DNA from: an uncultured Bacteroidota bacterium
GTDB taxonomy: Bacteria; Bacteroidota; Bacteroidia; Flavobacteriales; Schleiferiaceae
Reading direction: 5' to 3'
Assembly (NCBI GenBank): GCA_913057235.1
Contig: CAJXNI010000003.1
Location: 62,001 to 126,000 of the forward strand
DNA length: 64,000 bases
In this document: positions 1 to 64,000 of the stretch, piece by piece
Position numbering within the stretch: the first letter of the stretch is position 1
How the letters are laid out: each line of letters opens with the position of its first letter
The notes under the pieces: generated by a model
Seen by the model: only the letters and a program-made list of their open reading frames with translations
What the model was told of the DNA's origin: nothing
Database searches by the model: none
Translations under genes and position numbers: made by a program

Positions 1-363
1 TTCATGATGCTCATAAAAGGCCTTGATGATACCAATGCTAATGGAGTGCTCGCCCCCAAAAAAGGTGAGGAATTTATTGGTCTTCAATAAATTTTGCGTG
101 CTGGCGTACACCGTTTCAAATACCTTTTCAGGCGATGCCGCTTCGGTAATGGCGGGCAAAATATGGATGCCCTGCAGATAGACCTCGCTATCGGTTTCAA
201 TATCGTAGAGCTCCATGTTTTCGGCTGCTTCCAGAAAAGCACCAAAGCCATCATCAGCGCCTTTGCCCCAGGTGCTGGTACCGTCATAAGGAATGCTCTG
301 CAACCAAACGGCTGCCTGGTCTTTTTGAGCAAATTCATCTTCTACGCCTGCGAAGTTTTTCAT
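1..363 (-). CDS. speB: agmatinase / arginase-family ureohydrolase, N-terminal part (cut by window edge)
   Basis: Ureohydrolases of this family split agmatine into putrescine and urea using a dinuclear manganese centre. The 121 visible codons start at an ATG (complement 361-363) and run off the left edge. They contain PYDGTSTWGKG, the usual substrate-loop start of agmatinases, and FFGGEHSISIG, which corresponds to the GGDHS motif carrying the first metal-binding histidine; here Glu replaces the usual Asp of the motif, which is common in Bacteroidota members. Arginine decarboxylase lies 131 bases upstream on the same strand, so the pair probably makes putrescine from arginine by way of agmatine. 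The metal ligands of the C-terminal half cannot be seen. Agmatinase rather than arginase is chosen mainly because of the neighbour. Confidence 0.85.
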   Translation of the reverse strand, partial: MKNFAGVEDEFAQKDQAAVWLQSIPYDGTSTWGKGADDGFGAFLEAAENMELYDIETDSEVYLQGIHILPAITEAASPEKVFETVYASTQNLLKTNKFLTFFGGEHSISIGIIKAFYEHHE

Positions 364-392
364 GTATTTTTTCTAGCTTGATCTTATCACTT

Positions 393-424
393 AGCCCCCT
401 AAATCCCCCCAAGAGGGACTTTTG
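393..424. repeat. C/G-rich intergenic repeat-like element
   Basis: This stretch between arginine decarboxylase and agmatinase holds runs of C on one side and a run of G on the other (TTAGCCCCCTAAATCC, then AAGAGGGACTTTT). From memory it looks like a short imperfect palindrome that recurs between genes in many Bacteroidota genomes. I see no second copy in this window, so its repeat nature is inferred. Confidence 0.3.
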
Positions 425-494
425 CTACGTTTTTGTGGCCTCTGTTTTTATTTGTTAAGATTTACTTTTCCTATAAACCTATAAACCAAAAACC

Positions 495-1901
495 CTACTT
501 CGTATAACCCAACAACCTAAACATCTCATCAGGCGACTGCTCATTACGGTAGACATAATCTACAATATCGCCTTTTTCATCACGGTCTATAATCACGTGC
601 TTGGGCGAGGGAATTAAACAGTGTTTAATGCCACCGTAGCCGCTAATGGCATCTTGGTAAGCCCCGGTGTGGAAAAATCCCAGGTAAAGCGGTTCCTCAT
701 CATCGTCATCAAAAGTGGGCAAAAGCACCTCCTGGTTTAAGTCCTCAGAATTGTAATAATCGGAGTGGTCGCAGCTAATGCCGCCAATATTTACCCTGCG
801 GTAGGGCTTATCCCATTTGTTAATGGGCAAGAGAATAAACTTCTCGTTGATACTCCAGGCATCAGGAATGGTGTTCATTAAGCTATTATTAATGATGTAC
901 CACAGCTCGGTATCATTTTGCAGTTTTTGCTCCAGCACTTTAAAAATAACCGCCCCGGCTTCACCCACCGTGTATTTACCAAATTCGGTAAAAATATTGG
1001 GGTGGGGTACTTTTTCGGCATTGCAGGTTTCGGCAATGGTTTTTACAATTTCATTAATGATGTAATCGTAATCGTACTCAAAGCCCAGGTTGTTTCTAAT
1101 AGGGAAGCCACCGCCTAAATTAAACGAGTCTAAGCTAGGGCATTGCTTGCTGAGGCGCACGTACAGTCCCATGGCGCGTTGAAATTCTCCCCAGTAGTAC
1201 AAGCTGTCTTTAATACCGCTGTCTACAAAAAAGTGCAGCATTTTTAGTTCTACGTTGGGGTTGTCTTTGATGTTTTCATCAAAAAAGGCCTCCATCTCAT
1301 TGTGACGGATGCCCAATCGAGAGGTGTAATAAGAGGATTGCGGCTCTTCGTTTATGGCCATGCGCAAACCAATCTGTAAGCGGCTTTCGCCCGATAGTTC
1401 GGAGAGGCGTTTTAACTCGGTTTTGCTATCCAACACTACCAAAATATTGCTAAAGCCCATTTCACGCAAGGCCACAATTTTCCGCAGGTATTCATCGGTT
1501 TTATAACCATTGTTTACCACGTACTGCTGTTTGGTGATTTTCCCCTCACGATACAGGTTTAAGATCAAATCAATATCAAAGGCCGAACTCGTTTCCAGGT
1601 GCACTTTATGCTTCACCGCTTCGCTTACCACATGGCTAAAGTGGTTGCATTTGGTGCAATAGCAAAAGCGATAGGCTCCCTCATAATGGTGTTTTTTTAT
1701 GGCCCGGTTAAAGAGGTTTCGCGCCTTTTTTATTTGATCGCCAATTTTGGGGAGGTAAATAAAGCGGAAAGGCGTATCGTATTTGTCAATCAGGTGTTTA
1801 AGGGAGATGCCGTGAAAGGTGAGGTAACCATCTCTTTGATCAAAACCTTCCTGCGGGAAGTAATAACTCTGATCGATAAGGTCGAAGTAGGTATTGCGCA
1901 T
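495..1901 (-). CDS. speA: arginine decarboxylase, PLP-dependent (fold type III)
   Basis: This 468-residue protein belongs to the Orn/DAP/Arg decarboxylase group 2 family (PLP on an alanine-racemase barrel). FCYCTKCNHF near residues 79-88 holds the PLP-binding lysine (K84), FNLGGGFP is the glycine-rich phosphate-binding loop, and GISCDHSDYY near residue 375 supplies the cysteine and aspartate that the partner subunit contributes to the active site. The length fits the compact Bacteroidota form rather than the roughly 650-residue E. coli SpeA. There is no signal peptide. Agmatinase follows 131 bases downstream, which supports arginine as substrate and agmatine as product. Diaminopimelate or carboxynorspermidine decarboxylase are less likely alternatives. 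Confidence 0.85.
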   Translation of the reverse strand: MRNTYFDLIDQSYYFPQEGFDQRDGYLTFHGISLKHLIDKYDTPFRFIYLPKIGDQIKKARNLFNRAIKKHHYEGAYRFCYCTKCNHFSHVVSEAVKHKVHLETSSAFDIDLILNLYREGKITKQQYVVNNGYKTDEYLRKIVALREMGFSNILVVLDSKTELKRLSELSGESRLQIGLRMAINEEPQSSYYTSRLGIRHNEMEAFFDENIKDNPNVELKMLHFFVDSGIKDSLYYWGEFQRAMGLYVRLSKQCPSLDSFNLGGGFPIRNNLGFEYDYDYIINEIVKTIAETCNAEKVPHPNIFTEFGKYTVGEAGAVIFKVLEQKLQNDTELWYIINNSLMNTIPDAWSINEKFILLPINKWDKPYRRVNIGGISCDHSDYYNSEDLNQEVLLPTFDDDDEEPLYLGFFHTGAYQDAISGYGGIKHCLIPSPKHVIIDRDEKGDIVDYVYRNEQSPDEMFRLLGYTK

Positions 1902-57179: not shown

Positions 57180-58166
57180 ATGCGCTCCATTTTTATCCTA
57201 CTCATTTCATTGGCCGGTGTTATGCTATCGGCCCAAGCCGGTTACACTATTGTGGTGCACGGGGGCGCTGGCAATGGCTTAAAACCAGAAAACGTATCGC
57301 CCCAGAGGCAAGAAGCCTATACCCAGGGAGTAGAAAAAGCCCTCCAAAGAGGGGCCGCAGTACTGGATAGTGGAGCCGATGCGCTAACAGCGGTTGTAGA
57401 AGTGTTAAGCGTTCTGGAAAATGATAGCGTTTTTAATGCTGGCAGAGGCGCGGTACTCACCTATGAGGGAGAGGTTTCGTTAGATGCTTCGCTTATGAAT
57501 GGCCAAAATCTAGAGGCCGGAGCAGTAAGCGGTGTGCAGCGTGTTAAAAATCCTATTCAGGCGGCCTACGCAGTTTTACAGCACTCCCCTCATGTTTTGC
57601 TTAGCGGCTCTGGGGCCGATGAATTTGCCCGTTTGCAACAACTAGAGCTAGTAAGCCCTTCCTATTTTTTGACCCAAAAAAGTCAGAGGGCTCTAAAGCG
57701 GTATAAGGCGCGTTTTGGGCTAGAAACCTCTGAGCTTAACACAAATGCTAAAATGGGTACGGTGGGTTGTGCGATATTAGACAAAAACGGCAATTTGGCA
57801 GCCGGTACCTCCACGGGGGGCATGACCGGTAAGCGATACGGCAGAATAGGGGATTCACCTATTATTGGTGCGGGAACTTATGCGAATAATGCTACCTGCG
57901 CCATTAGTTGCACGGGACATGGCGAGTTTTTTATGCGCTACAGTGTGGCCTATGACGTACACGCCCGTATGGCTTATAAAAAGCAAAGTGGTTCAGAGGC
58001 AGCTCAGGCTATAGTGCATGAGATTTTAAAACCGGCTGGGGGTAATGGTGGCCTTATTGGACTCACCCAGTCTGGCCAAATTATTATGGAGTTTAATACC
58101 TCTGGCATGATTAGAGGCTACTTGAAGGAAGGGCAAACACCAGTTACGGCCATTTTTAAAGATTAG
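57180..58166 (+). CDS. isoaspartyl peptidase/L-asparaginase (Ntn hydrolase)
   Basis: A 328-residue plant-type asparaginase with a signal peptide (FILLISLAGVMLSAQA), so it is exported. Ntn hydrolases of this family cleave themselves before the nucleophile threonine, here T194 in MGTVGCAILD; the mature alpha chain begins YTIVVHGGAGNG and the beta chain holds GGMTGKRYGRIGDSPIIGAG. It hydrolyses asparagine or isoaspartyl dipeptides. The tRNA-Val gene follows 121 bases downstream with its own promoter. Confidence 0.9.
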   Translation: MRSIFILLISLAGVMLSAQAGYTIVVHGGAGNGLKPENVSPQRQEAYTQGVEKALQRGAAVLDSGADALTAVVEVLSVLENDSVFNAGRGAVLTYEGEVSLDASLMNGQNLEAGAVSGVQRVKNPIQAAYAVLQHSPHVLLSGSGADEFARLQQLELVSPSYFLTQKSQRALKRYKARFGLETSELNTNAKMGTVGCAILDKNGNLAAGTSTGGMTGKRYGRIGDSPIIGAGTYANNATCAISCTGHGEFFMRYSVAYDVHARMAYKKQSGSEAAQAIVHEILKPAGGNGGLIGLTQSGQIIMEFNTSGMIRGYLKEGQTPVTAIFKD

Positions 58167-59508: not shown

Positions 59509-59835
59509 TTAAGAAACAGCTTCTTCTTCGATATTTAGAACAGTGAGTTGATTGAACAAACTTTTTTTAAAAGCCTCATTCATGGTCGAAGAACAGCCAC
59601 TGAGCTCTACGTAACATTTTCCCTCTTCTGGGAAGGTGTGTACCGCTAAATGACTTTCACTAAGCAACCAAATAGCCGTGTAACCTTGGGGCGAAAAATG
59701 ATGTTCATTAAAGCCCACAATCCCATAGCCGGCTTCTTTTAACAGGTTGTCAAAATCGGCTTTAAGCCGATGCGACTCGGTTTCTTTGATCCAAGCTCGG
59801 AAGTTATAAATACGAGTTCTTTTTGTGTACGCCAT
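59509..59835 (-). CDS. speD: S-adenosylmethionine decarboxylase (pyruvoyl type)
   Basis: A 108-residue prokaryotic AdoMetDC, which makes decarboxylated SAM for spermidine synthesis. The precursor cuts itself between E60 and S61 in SESHLAVHTFPE, and the serine becomes the pyruvoyl group; H66 and C81 (ELSGC) are the other catalytic residues. It lies 4 bases after the spermidine synthase gene on the same strand and is the last gene of the minus-strand series starting with the pspA-like gene. Confidence 0.95.
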   Translation of the reverse strand: MAYTKRTRIYNFRAWIKETESHRLKADFDNLLKEAGYGIVGFNEHHFSPQGYTAIWLLSESHLAVHTFPEEGKCYVELSGCSSTMNEAFKKSLFNQLTVLNIEEEAVS

Positions 59836-59839
59836 GTCT

Positions 59840-61390
59840 TTAGTAAAGATCCCAATTTCCGTTAAGGTAATAACGGTACAAAACGGGATTTTGAATTTTA
59901 TTGATTTCTACTGAGTCTTGGGGGAAGCCATAAATGTCTTTGCCAAATGAAGTAATAAGCTGCATAGCCTCGTGGTTGAGCCAGCGAGTGGGCACCTGCT
60001 CAGGTTTAAGGCTTTGTATTTTAGCTTTTAAGGCATCGGGGGAACCTTTAAAACCTTTAGCGCCCAGCACCCAACCCCATTCACCTAAGGTAAGCACCTG
60101 ATTGTGCAGCGGAACGGTTTTAAAATTAGCGGCTTGCATGGTTTTATCAATGCAAACAAAGGCCTTAGTGGCATAGTACGGGCTGCCGGCCTGCGTAACC
60201 AGGGCACCGGCTGGCCTTAGCGCCCGGTAGCACAAATGGTAAAATTCCTCAGTGTATAGGCGATTCAGTTCTACAGAGCGGGGGTCGGGCAGATCTACCA
60301 GAATAAGGTCAAAGAACTGTTGGGTTTGCTCCAGATAGTTGAAGCCATCTTTGTTTAAAATGGTCACCTTAGGGTGATTTAAAGCATTTTGATTTAGCTC
60401 AGTAAGTACGGGATGCTTTTGCCCCAGGTTGGTCATCACAGAATCCAAATCAATGAGCGTGATGGATTTAACCTGCGGGTATTTTAATACTTCTCGAGCC
60501 GCGCACCCATCGCCTCCGCCTAAAATGAGAATGTCTTGTTTTTGGTCTAGCAGCTGCATGGCAGGGTGTACCAAAGGCTCGTGATATTTATCCTCATCTA
60601 TAGTGCTTAGCTGTTGATTGCCATTTAAATACAACCAGTATTCATTTTTCCACTGCGTGATTATTATACGCTGATACTTACTCTGTTTAGCGTAGATAAT
60701 TTTGTCGTCATAGCGGGCCTGCTCGCCATACAGAATAATGGGCTGGGCCAAAAATATGCCTGTGGTAATGATGGCAATTAAACCCACTCCTGAGAAGGTA
60801 ATGGTCCTTTGGCGTGCCCGCGATAGCTCAGAGCGCACCGTGTAAAAAAGCGTAAGGGCCACCAGCAGATTGAGGGCGCCCAAGATAAATGGTGTATAGG
60901 TGAGGCCAAGAATGGGCAACCCTACAAAGGCAAAGAACAAACCGCCCACCAGGCTACCCAGGTAATCTTTTTCCATCACACGGGCTACATTCAGGCGCAG
61001 GCTTTCAAATTGCTCGTTCAGCCGAATTACCAGGGGTATTTCCAATCCAATGAGCACGCCAATACAAATGCTGAGACTGTAAATGAAAATGCCGGTATAC
61101 TCTGTAAATCCCGCCAAGGTATAGGAAAGGGTAGAGGAAAATGAAACCAACAGGCTCAGTAAGAACTCAACTGCAATAAATTTTAACAGCAAGTTACTTT
61201 TAAAAAATTGGCTTAATCTACTGCCCAGGCCCATTGAAAAGAGCATAACCGATACAATTAGTGACCATTGCACCGCTGAATCACCAATAAAATAGGTGGC
61301 CAGGGTAGACAAAATATATTCGGCCACAATGCCACTAAGGCCGGTGGCAAAGAGGGCTAACTTTAAAACCGGTGATTTTTTAAGGGCCAT
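59840..61390 (-). CDS. speE: membrane-anchored spermidine synthase
   Basis: About 516 residues. The first half has six to seven membrane helices (LALFATGLSGIVAEYILS, VMLFSMGLGSRLSQFF, SICIGVLIGLEIP), the second is a polyamine aminopropyltransferase with LILGGGDGCAARE for decarboxylated SAM and VDLPDPRSVELNRLYTEEFY with the catalytic Asp. It transfers aminopropyl groups to putrescine. The ATG at 61390 overlaps the DUF350 gene stop (TAATG); an upstream ATG at 61402 is also possible. It is followed at 4 bases by speD. The membrane form is typical of clusters with DUF350 genes. Confidence 0.9.
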   Translation of the reverse strand: MALKKSPVLKLALFATGLSGIVAEYILSTLATYFIGDSAVQWSLIVSVMLFSMGLGSRLSQFFKSNLLLKFIAVEFLLSLLVSFSSTLSYTLAGFTEYTGIFIYSLSICIGVLIGLEIPLVIRLNEQFESLRLNVARVMEKDYLGSLVGGLFFAFVGLPILGLTYTPFILGALNLLVALTLFYTVRSELSRARQRTITFSGVGLIAIITTGIFLAQPIILYGEQARYDDKIIYAKQSKYQRIIITQWKNEYWLYLNGNQQLSTIDEDKYHEPLVHPAMQLLDQKQDILILGGGDGCAAREVLKYPQVKSITLIDLDSVMTNLGQKHPVLTELNQNALNHPKVTILNKDGFNYLEQTQQFFDLILVDLPDPRSVELNRLYTEEFYHLCYRALRPAGALVTQAGSPYYATKAFVCIDKTMQAANFKTVPLHNQVLTLGEWGWVLGAKGFKGSPDALKAKIQSLKPEQVPTRWLNHEAMQLITSFGKDIYGFPQDSVEINKIQNPVLYRYYLNGNWDLY

Positions 61391-62277
61391 TAAATGCACC
61401 AAACAATCAGCACCGATCCACCAATGTAGCCAATGGCTTCTACCAATGCTGCTCCAACATTCGGTTTATCTTGCCGGGCAATCTCATCGCTGAGGCTGCG
61501 GCCGGGCAGCAAAATTTTATCTACCAAAGTGCGGATGATGGGCAAGAATACCAAGCCAATGCCCGCCTCATAGGCTACCTCCAGCAAGGTTTCATTCCAG
61601 CTGGCAAAATCGCCCATGAGGCCATTGCGAATTAAATTGGCAATGGCAATTAAGGCGGCTGCAAAACCTAATCCTGCCGCAGCATTGTCTTTCTCAATTT
61701 CTGCGTGCACATCATAATTGGTGATTTTATTGTACAACCAGGCGGTAACAAGAATAAGCACCTGTCCTAACGCCCAATAGGCAATGGCCGTGTAAATGCC
61801 AAAAGCTACATTGCCACTCTCACCCGTAATAGCGCCAAAAATGATCAGTCCGGCTGAAAAGTAGTTAGCCGCTTCAATGAGGCCCATGCCCACATTTTGG
61901 TCTTCGGTAATTTCCTTCCAAACCGAGAAGCGCCTCAGTGTAATCTTGTCCATAATGAGCGATGACAGGTTGAGCAGCACAATGGCCAGTACCCCGTAAA
62001 TAGCCATGTCTATTAAGTCTGAAATTAATCCAAAAGATGCCCCATATACCGCGCTTCCCACCGCTAAAATGAGTCCTGCAAAGTAGCCTACGTAGCCAAA
62101 GCTAAAGGCCAGATTGTCTTTGGTGATGAGCTCGTGGGTAACGGCAATTTTAGATTTTACCGCTTTAAAAATGAGTTTGCCAATGTAAAGTAAAACTACA
62201 CTGGCTGAGAGGTAAATTAAGAACAGCAGAAAAGCATTCAGCCATTCATTTTCTACAAGAATAGTGGTCATTTTCAA
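61390..62277 (-). CDS. DUF350 family membrane protein (two repeats)
   Basis: A 295-residue membrane protein with eight hydrophobic segments in two DUF350 repeats of about 70 residues each (ITKDNLAFSFGYVGYFAGLILA; KDNAAAGLGFAAALIAIANL). The family includes E. coli YjfL. Its stop overlaps the start of the membrane spermidine synthase gene by one base, and the lipoprotein gene is 14 bases upstream. It is probably in the inner membrane; biochemical function is not known. Confidence 0.85.
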   Translation of the reverse strand: MKMTTILVENEWLNAFLLFLIYLSASVVLLYIGKLIFKAVKSKIAVTHELITKDNLAFSFGYVGYFAGLILAVGSAVYGASFGLISDLIDMAIYGVLAIVLLNLSSLIMDKITLRRFSVWKEITEDQNVGMGLIEAANYFSAGLIIFGAITGESGNVAFGIYTAIAYWALGQVLILVTAWLYNKITNYDVHAEIEKDNAAAGLGFAAALIAIANLIRNGLMGDFASWNETLLEVAYEAGIGLVFLPIIRTLVDKILLPGRSLSDEIARQDKPNVGAALVEAIGYIGGSVLIVWCI

Positions 62278-62291
62278 GGTTGTTTAGAGAA

Positions 62292-63044
62292 TTATTTTCC
62301 ACTGCCAAATCCGCGGGAGCGTGAAGACGAGCGACTACGAAAGCGAGAGGTGCTGCGCGTGCGGCTGGCGCTGCGTTTTACCCGGCTGCGCACATTACTC
62401 TTAAAACTGCTGCTGCGGCTATTCCAGGTGCTACGGGCACTGCGGTTGCGGGTGTGGGTGCCGTTGGTGCCAAAGCGGGTGTTACCACCTGAAGTACCGT
62501 AATAGGTGCGACCGTAGGGATAGTAATTTCTGCGGTAATTGTTCCAGCCGCCATAGTAAATGGGGCTGTAGCCGAAACCAAAGAGGCTGCGCATGAACGC
62601 ATACTGCCCGTAAAATTCCCAAAAGCTGGTGCCGTTGTTGCCTTGTTTCCACTGACCGTACTTCTCATTACCCACGTAATTATTGTAGCCCGGTGGTGTC
62701 GTTTTTTTCTCAACCACACCATTGGTTTTAGTCACCAGCGCCATGCCCATGTCATTTACATGCTCTTCAAAATAGGGTGCAGGAACCCGTTGCCATTCCG
62801 TGATATTTTCAATTAGGGTGTCTTGCCCTGCGGGTTCTTTTAAAACGCGGTATTTGTGCAGGTAATGCTCTTTTTCCTGATCAAAGTCCATGTCATACAA
62901 CAAAATGCTGTAGTTCTCTAAGGAGGCCAAATCACGAATAATATTGTCAATGGGTTTTTTCTCAAAGGGTGGTGGTCCACTCTGGCAGCTCCATATGCCG
63001 AGCATAGCGAGTAGTAGGAGGCCTGCCGGTATAATTTTTTTCAT
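62292..63044 (-). CDS. lipoprotein with Arg/Ser-rich C-terminal tail
   Basis: A 250-residue lipoprotein (LLLLAMLGIWSC, C20). Residues about 30-125 form a globular domain (ENYSILLYDMDFDQEKEHYLHKYRV, WQRVPAPYFEEHV). A glycine/tyrosine/asparagine-rich stretch (YGGWNNYRRNYYPYGRTYYG) then passes into about 60 residues of Arg-Ser-Thr-Gly repeats (RSARSTWNSRSSS, SRFRSRSSSRSRGFGSGK). It is the third gene of the pspA-DUF4178-DUF350-speE-speD series. I know no characterised homologue; the cationic tail could bind a polyanion, but this is inference. Confidence 0.75.
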   Translation of the reverse strand: MKKIIPAGLLLLAMLGIWSCQSGPPPFEKKPIDNIIRDLASLENYSILLYDMDFDQEKEHYLHKYRVLKEPAGQDTLIENITEWQRVPAPYFEEHVNDMGMALVTKTNGVVEKKTTPPGYNNYVGNEKYGQWKQGNNGTSFWEFYGQYAFMRSLFGFGYSPIYYGGWNNYRRNYYPYGRTYYGTSGGNTRFGTNGTHTRNRSARSTWNSRSSSFKSNVRSRVKRSASRTRSTSRFRSRSSSRSRGFGSGK

Positions 63045-63093
63045 GGGATATTTTGGTTTTCTGCGTGAGCGAATTTAATCTTTCCCCAGGCAA

Positions 63094-63645
63094 TTAGCCT
63101 TTGTTACGGGGGAGGATATTTGAAATTTCAAACTCCTTTATCAATTTACCATGACTAGCTTCAAAAGAGTTCTCACCCCACTGCTCTAGGGTTAGACAAT
63201 GGGTTTCTTCATCGTTATAATAATCCCAGGCTATAAACTCTTCCCAGTTTTCATCCACATCTTCATCCGCTGCGTTTTTAAAATACCCCGGGCTCTCGCC
63301 TTCTAAGTGATAGGTTTTATTTTCAAAAACTATTTGGCGGGGTGCTTTAAAACGGCCATCTACTCTGGCATCAAAATCAACTGAGAGTTTGCGCAGTTTT
63401 AGCTTGGAGCTTATGCTAATTTCAAGCTCATCAGCTTCATCAACGGAAAGATAATATGATTTCTCTCCGTTATTTATTTTGAATTCCTTGCTAAAATCTT
63501 CATGACCCCAGTCGTATTCATACACTTCTTTTACTTCCCAGGTACTTAAATCGTACTCAAAGATGTAGCCCAAATCTAAATCTCGCACGGTGCGGCTATT
63601 GGGCTTGGGGTCTTCTTTTTTTCGGTTGAATAATTTGTTAAACAT
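63094..63645 (-). CDS. DUF4178-type protein
   Basis: A 183-residue soluble acidic protein. TVRDLDLGYIFEYDLSTWEV and VYEYDWGHED, with a later EEFIAWDYYNDEETHCLTLEQWGE segment, are typical of DUF4178 proteins. The family is found with PspA and DUF350 genes in many bacteria. It lies 49 bases before the lipoprotein gene and 60 after the pspA-like gene, all on the minus strand. Biochemical role is not known. Confidence 0.75.
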   Translation of the reverse strand: MFNKLFNRKKEDPKPNSRTVRDLDLGYIFEYDLSTWEVKEVYEYDWGHEDFSKEFKINNGEKSYYLSVDEADELEISISSKLKLRKLSVDFDARVDGRFKAPRQIVFENKTYHLEGESPGYFKNAADEDVDENWEEFIAWDYYNDEETHCLTLEQWGENSFEASHGKLIKEFEISNILPRNKG

Positions 63646-63665
63646 GTTAAAGCAGTAGTAAAACC

Positions 63666-63698
63666 AAGAAGGCCGTTTCCATAGAAAACAGCCTTCTT
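63666..63698 (-). terminator. hairpin between pspA-like and DUF4178 genes
   Basis: AAGAAGGC pairs with GCCTTCTT, and GTTT with AAAC inside, with one mismatch. The T run after it is short (GGTTTT), so it may be a partial terminator or processing site lowering expression of the genes downstream. Confidence 0.45.
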
Positions 63699-63705
63699 CA
63701 ACTAA

Positions 63706-64000
63706 TTACTCATTTGATTTTTTAGCCTTCATTTTCGCTTTTAAGGCGGCCAAATCAGAGCTGGCACTAGTGGCGTTGCTATCACCCAGGGCGCTGTTAA
63801 TCTCCTCATCTAAAGAGCGACTTTCCCCGGCAATATCACCGTAGCTTTCAGCCAAAGCCTCTTCTTGCGCCACTTTTTCTTTCATGCGCTCCAACATGTT
63901 TACCGTTCCGCTGGAGTCAATTTGGCTCATTTGCTTGTTAATATTCTTTGTGGCTGAACTCACTTTTACCCGTGCTTTAAGCGTTTTCAGCTCATTTTCA
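63706..64000 (-). CDS. PspA/IM30 family protein, C-terminal part (cut by window edge)
   Basis: The last 98 codons of a coiled-coil protein; its start lies past 64000. The visible sequence (ELKTLKARVKVSSATKNINKQMSQ, VNMLERMKEKVAQEEALAESYGD) is the PspA/Vipp1 helical hairpin end with the short acidic tail SALGDSN and a basic terminus KAKMKAKKSNE. PspA proteins bind stressed or bent inner membrane. It begins the minus-strand series DUF4178, lipoprotein, DUF350, speE, speD. Confidence 0.8.
   Translation of the reverse strand, partial: ENELKTLKARVKVSSATKNINKQMSQIDSSGTVNMLERMKEKVAQEEALAESYGDIAGESRSLDEEINSALGDSNATSASSDLAALKAKMKAKKSNE

What the first reader, a model, noticed from the sequence alone, without database searches (positions are those of the whole stretch)
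59509..64000. Polyamine synthesis genes fused into a PspA/DUF350/DUF4178 membrane cluster
Six minus-strand genes with small gaps (pspA-like, DUF4178, Arg/Ser lipoprotein, double DUF350, membrane-anchored spermidine synthase, AdoMet decarboxylase) form one series, with overlaps at DUF350/speE and 4 bases between speE and speD. I recognise this association from E. coli yjfIJKLMC-like loci, where PspA and DUF350 proteins go with polyamine-conjugating enzymes. Here the aminopropyl chemistry is anchored in the membrane next to DUF350. The inference is that spermidine or a derivative is made at the membrane as part of a PspA-linked envelope function. No ATP-grasp ligase is visible; it may lie beyond 64000.
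Basis: partly seen in the sequence, partly recalled or inferred. Interest (0 to 1): 0.75.

Follow-up and report, generated by a model that had tools for sequence, protein, structure and literature searches.

The report
PspA operon with membrane-bound aminopropyltransferase
The genes are real and form one conserved, already described kind of bacterial membrane-stress operon in which a membrane-embedded enzyme probably adds an aminopropyl group to something other than the usual polyamine; what it modifies is still unknown.

Summary
The minus-strand cluster is a seven-gene operon that runs past the window: CesT/Tir-PspA-DUF4178-lipoprotein-double DUF350-7TM/aminopropyltransferase fusion-speD, behind a divergent XRE regulator. 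It carries the genome's only PspA, SpeD and SpeE-like protein. Gene order is conserved in relatives. In 149 genomes of the class the fusion never occurs without DUF350 (16/16) and rarely without speD (14/16). It belongs to a published kind: 'group 2' PspA operons (Ravi et al. 2024); the AdoMet-decarboxylase link was noted by Li et al. 2019. The predicted ATP-grasp ligase is absent from the whole genome. Best reading: aminopropylation of a membrane-associated acceptor other than putrescine under envelope-stress control; the acceptor (lipid?) is inferred. Added here: close relatives insert a YqiJ-flotillin-AAA+ trio into the same operon (merging two published groups), a conserved CTAA/TTAG control region, and a probably exported amine-oxidase-like protein found only in fusion genomes.

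The parts
59509..59835 (-). speD: class 1b-like S-adenosylmethionine decarboxylase, 108 aa, divergent subfamily (106-113 aa in nearest relatives)
   Evidence: Pfam AdoMet_dc 7e-15; below TIGR03330 cut-off; SESH cleavage site, His and Cys kept, Ser of GVSG is Thr, LGxH N-terminus lost
59840..61390 (-). fusion of N-terminal 7TM domain and C-terminal aminopropyltransferase (spermidine-synthase fold), 516 aa from ATG 61390 (520 aa from TTG 61402)
   Evidence: Spermine_synth 8e-38, NF002956 571 bits over cut-off; AF2 model and Foldseek to 1uir/7xif; catalytic DxPDP and Tyr kept, acceptor Tyr lost
61390..62277 (-). double DUF350 membrane protein (likely start ATG 62271)
   Evidence: PF03994 twice, 1e-49; own genome has no other DUF350
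62292..63044 (-). lipoprotein with conserved Arg/Ser/Gly-rich tail; no Pfam/NCBIfam family
   Evidence: lipobox-like IWSC, tail 15 R + 3 K and no D/E in the last 70 aa; tail conserved in eight loci; probably Ravi's 'Ctha_1186' lipoprotein by position, not tested
63094..63645 (-). DUF4178 protein, 183 aa
   Evidence: PF13785 3e-23
63666..63698 (-). 15-pair hairpin between pspA and DUF4178, possible attenuator
   Evidence: -21.9 kcal/mol, z -4.5; gaps at this place in G121 and G177 are only 4-13 bases, too short for it
63706..64000 (-). pspA, C-terminal part; whole gene is L003:5706-6422 (window-equivalent 63706-64422); CesT_Tir_1 follows upstream at L003:6429-6824 and the divergent XRE regulator at L003:7015-7722
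   Evidence: PspA_IM30 6e-41, CesT_Tir_1 9e-55, HTH_3 3e-10; only PspA of the genome

Best explanation
A PspA-type envelope-stress operon with a built-in membrane-modifying chemistry. SpeD makes decarboxylated AdoMet; the 7TM/aminopropyltransferase fusion transfers its aminopropyl group to an acceptor at the inner membrane that is not putrescine, most likely a lipid head group or another membrane-associated amine, adding positive charge. DUF350, the 7TM part and the basic-tailed lipoprotein serve placement, flipping or sensing of the product, and PspA with its CesT-like partner stabilises the bilayer from the cytoplasmic side. A divergent XRE regulator binding the CTAA/TTAG cluster controls it. 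Shown: gene content, synteny, uniqueness in the genome, residue changes, conserved control region. Inferred: acceptor identity, flipping, stress role, repression.
For: Conserved operon and co-occurrence. Catalytic residues kept, acceptor Tyr lost, read against residue roles in human SPDS: Asp173 deprotonates, Tyr79 and Tyr241 position the amine (PMC12812037). Best solved sequence and fold matches include archaeal and Thermus aminopropyltransferases, one titled triamine/agmatine aminopropyltransferase. The genome's own putrescine and DHS-like cluster makes a second polyamine route redundant. Amine-oxidase-like proteins, most starting with an RR motif and a lipobox-like Cys (Tat-like export), sit beside the fusion in 10/16 fusion genomes, and full-length matches occur in none of 133 others, suggesting a product outside the cytoplasm. 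The operon also merges with YqiJ-flotillin-AAA+. Ravi et al. propose aminopropylation of other substrates. Own recollection of Li et al. 2019 (not held): fusions do not complement a speE mutant.
Against: No acceptor identified. Near-side catalytic residues of spermidine synthase are intact, so putrescine use is not excluded by sequence. This genome lacks the oxidase and the channel. The AF2 model rests on four sequences (pLDDT 69), so the arrangement of active site and membrane is not known. speD is divergent here, with Ser to Thr near the active site, and activity is unproven.
Confidence: 0.45

Rival explanations
1. The fusion makes spermidine (or another free polyamine) at the membrane and its 7TM part exports it, giving a surface polyamine coat under envelope stress.
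For: Spermidine-synthase fold with catalytic Asp and Tyr kept; putrescine is probably available from ADC and agmatinase; adjacent speD; a probably exported amine oxidase in relatives would fit a periplasmic polyamine.
Against: Acceptor Tyr motif YP[TS]G absent in all 34 fusions, kept in soluble SpeE of the same class; own recollection of Li et al. 2019: no spermidine in such bacteria and no complementation.
Confidence: 0.25
2. The polyamine genes are mainly a sensor: PspA responds to polyamine or dcAdoMet level rather than to a modified envelope molecule.
For: Proposed by Ravi et al. 2024 as one option; ion-channel genes in some relatives.
Against: A conserved complete donor-transferase pair, with an oxidase partner in 10 genomes, looks like a synthetic pathway.
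Confidence: 0.15
3. A peptide-polyamine conjugate is made as in yjf/GspS-type operons, with the ATP-grasp ligase encoded elsewhere.
For: Sister operons of this kind carry such a ligase.
Against: No GSP_synth match in the whole genome or in any of the 16 fusion genomes, while 8 other genomes of the sample have one and the search rings in E. coli and Caulobacter.
Confidence: 0.03

Closest known systems
Group 2 CesT/Tir-PspA operon (Ravi et al. 2024, mSystems, PMC11237479; e.g. AAN56744.1-AAN56747.1)
   Same: CesT/Tir, PspA, DUF4178, lipoprotein, 8TM DUF350 and spermidine-synthase-like domain fused to a 7TM domain
   Different: speD is the last gene here (their text names AdoMet decarboxylase for another variant); divergent XRE regulator instead of the RHH factor seen in some; three relatives carry their group 1 genes (YqiJ, flotillin, AAA+) inside the same operon
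AdoMetDC plus MFS-SpdSyn fusion with DUF350 (Li et al. 2019, Biochem J 476:2579; not held, known from citation and own recollection)
   Same: SpeD with membrane-fused SpdSyn-like protein and DUF350
   Different: speD here belongs to a shorter divergent subfamily; PspA-linked context
E. coli yjfIJKLMC / Ravi group 3
   Same: PspA, CesT-like (YjfI), DUF350
   Different: no ATP-grasp ligase, DUF1190, DUF2491 or channel in the window operon; aminopropyltransferase fusion instead
MprF-type lipid aminoacyltransferase/flippase (analogy from own knowledge)
   Same: TM domain fused to a cytosolic transferase that would add positive charge at the membrane
   Different: unrelated transferase fold; a lipid substrate here is only inferred

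Membership tests
Ravi group 2 PspA operon | CesT/Tir-PspA dyad | tested here: met
   CesT_Tir_1 9e-55 and PspA_IM30 6e-41, 6 bases apart
Ravi group 2 PspA operon | 7TM domain fused to spermidine-synthase-like domain | tested here: met
Ravi group 2 PspA operon | YjfL-family 8TM DUF350, DUF4178 and lipoprotein | tested here: met
   DUF350 twice, DUF4178; lipoprotein by position and lipobox. Identity with their 'Ctha_1186' domain not tested
Spermidine synthase (EC 2.5.1.16) | aminopropyltransferase fold and catalytic Asp173/Tyr79 | tested here: met
   roles
Spermidine synthase (EC 2.5.1.16) | acceptor-positioning Tyr241 (YP[TS]G) | tested here: not met
   motif absent in 34/34 fusions, present in 7/7 soluble SpeE from the class
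Spermidine synthase (EC 2.5.1.16) | makes spermidine from putrescine | not testable with these tools
   needs enzyme assay
AdoMet decarboxylase class 1b | Ser cleavage site in SESH, catalytic His and Cys | tested here: met
AdoMet decarboxylase class 1b | score above TIGR03330 equivalog cut-off | tested here: not met
   50 against 75.65 bits
yjf/GspS (Ravi group 3) operon | ATP-grasp GSP_synth ligase | tested here: not met
   none in own genome

The most novel reading that the evidence does not exclude
The fusion is a lipid aminopropyltransferase and flippase, an MprF-like enzyme using decarboxylated AdoMet, that makes an undescribed cationic aminopropyl lipid under PspA/flotillin/AAA+ control, with an exported amine oxidase remodelling it in many relatives.
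Probability: 0.25. Interest if true: 0.85.

Novelty: new member of a known kind. Interest (0 to 1): 0.42.

Why it matters
What the membrane-fused aminopropyltransferases of PspA operons modify is an open question. This genome is a clean case: one PspA, one SpeD, one SpeE-like protein, a separate polyamine route and no ligase or oxidase, so a single deletion followed by lipidomics could answer it. The ten-gene form in close relatives also ties the flotillin/AAA+ and polyamine branches of PspA biology into one operon.

Tried and rejected
ATP-grasp ligase beyond the window: rejected genome-wide. Mutual exclusion of fusion and GSP_synth: 0 of 16 against 8 of 133, not significant (p 0.6). A genome-wide regulon from the palindrome RCTAAN5TTAGCA: seven distinct places, at chance level (8 hits against 7 for the reversed control); only the cluster at this locus stands out. 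Genome-contig scan with the single protein gave only three loci. No open-access copy of Li et al. 2019. DUF3686 search in the own genome found nothing, but its control rang nowhere, so it does not prove absence. Paper search for a known aminopropylated lipid found nothing relevant.

Full report
What is there. The minus-strand genes 59509-64000 were confirmed by ORF calling and profile searches. The window lies at G000:C3:62001-126000. Reading on past 64000 completes PspA (238 aa) and adds a CesT_Tir_1 gene 6 bases upstream. After a 190-bp gap follows a divergent HTH_3/S24-like regulator. Order from the promoter: CesT, PspA, DUF4178, lipoprotein, double DUF350, 7TM-aminopropyltransferase fusion, speD. 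Junctions: TAATG one-base overlap between DUF350 and fusion, 4 bases between fusion and speD, 60 bases with a strong hairpin between pspA and DUF4178. The hairpin may set a high PspA to enzyme ratio; in G121 and G177 the gap is too short for it. The own-genome rows show one PspA, one SpeD, one fusion or SpeE-like hit and two DUF350 domains, both in this one gene.

Conservation. In 149 genomes sampled from the class (G000 included), 16 carry a full-length fusion, in 15 families. All 16 have DUF350, 14 have SpeD, none has GSP_synth. Fisher tests are; relatedness is not corrected for. In the order sample the fusion is in G000 plus 5 genomes of its own family, and in several other families. Neighbourhoods: the block DUF4178-lipoprotein-DUF350-fusion-speD is syntenic in L003, L035, L053, L079, L080, L081, L082 and L087. 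CesT-PspA directly precede it in L003, L035 and L079. In three close relatives (L091+L080, L092+L082, L093+L081) a YqiJ-like gene, a flotillin-like gene and a DUF3686/DUF7902 AAA+ ATPase lie between PspA and DUF4178, giving a ten-gene operon (the YqiJ match is just under its Pfam cut-off, and the flotillin label comes from the published neighbourhood and coiled-coil sequence, with no Pfam band-7 match). In Ravi et al. these are separate groups 1 and 2.

Two lineages of fusion. The tree separates the PspA/double-DUF350 type (including the window) from a type with single-copy DUF350 of about 72 aa, Zn-ribbon/DUF4178 proteins and an FAD amine-oxidase-like protein; one very long branch (L055) makes its place unsure. 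Full-length oxidase homologues are in 10 of the 16 fusion genomes and in none of the other 133. Most begin with an RR motif and a lipobox-like Cys, so they are probably exported. The window genome lacks it.

Chemistry. The aminopropyltransferase part keeps the catalytic DxPDP motif and the DE..YHE Tyr. Human SPDS uses Asp173, Tyr79 and Tyr241 to deprotonate and position the putrescine amine (PMC12812037). The Tyr241 region YP[TS]G, present in all seven soluble SpeE sequences compared, is replaced in the aligned fusions by (L/F/M)G-E-W-G with a two-residue deletion; a motif scan finds no YP[TS]G in any of 34 fusions. This argues for a working transferase with another acceptor, but does not prove it. 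SpeD here is short and divergent: SESH, His and Cys kept, Ser to Thr in the GVSG motif (residue roles from own knowledge of T. maritima AdoMetDC). The genome has arginine decarboxylase-like (window 495-1901), agmatinase (207 bits, over cut-off) and deoxyhypusine synthase-like genes together about 60 kb away, a separate polyamine route, so spermidine is not obviously needed from this operon. The exact product of that DHS-like enzyme was not tested.

Control. The regulator-CesT gap holds a cluster of CTAA/TTAG half-sites in eight genomes: 56 in total against 24 expected, largest of 1000 shuffles 38, in a block that is conserved while the rest of the gap drifts. The best single site is TACTAAAAAAATTAGCA at L003:6966. 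Binding by the XRE protein is inferred.

Mechanism and verdict. Best supported: a PspA envelope-stress operon in which SpeD and the membrane-fused transferase aminopropylate a membrane-associated acceptor. The lipid version (MprF-like) is an inference from domain architecture, loss of the putrescine Tyr and the exported oxidase. The kind of operon is published (Ravi et al. 2024; Li et al. 2019 by citation), so the finding is a new member with some new detail, not a new system.

Noticed in passing
window 1-1901 (-), continuing to L062:4542-6363: Arginine decarboxylase-like, agmatinase and deoxyhypusine synthase-like genes form a separate polyamine cluster at the other end of the window.
   Followed up: yes
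window 57180-58166 (+): Secreted Asparaginase_2-type gene. In L079, L080 and L082 a homologue follows speD with no gap on the same strand (L053 81 bases, L081 overlapping); here it is on the opposite strand, with Bax1-I and SNase genes between.
   Followed up: partly
L091:7579-13001 with L080; L092 with L082; L093 with L081: Ten-gene merger: CesT-PspA-YqiJ-flotillin-AAA+(DUF3686)-DUF4178-lipoprotein-DUF350-fusion-speD.
   Followed up: yes
L036:7785-13417 and L086:6174-11844: Two fusion copies face each other in one locus, one in the PspA operon, one with the amine-oxidase-like gene and a ~356 aa membrane protein that matches no Pfam family.
   Followed up: partly
L042, L043, L044, L047, L048 (speD): SpeD of the single-DUF350 lineage has Ser in place of the catalytic Cys (FLSN instead of FTCG); its activity may differ.
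   Followed up: no
L003:7015-7722 (+): Divergent XRE/S24-like regulator whose S24 active-site Ser appears to be Ala (GDKAM for GDSM), so probably not self-cleaving; a perfect palindrome TGCTAATTATTTTAGCA lies inside its coding region at L003:7167.
   Followed up: partly
window 62292-63044: The Arg/Ser/Gly-rich lipoprotein tail is conserved in relatives and nearly free of acidic residues, mostly ending in GFG..K; a possible polyanion-binding tail.
   Followed up: partly
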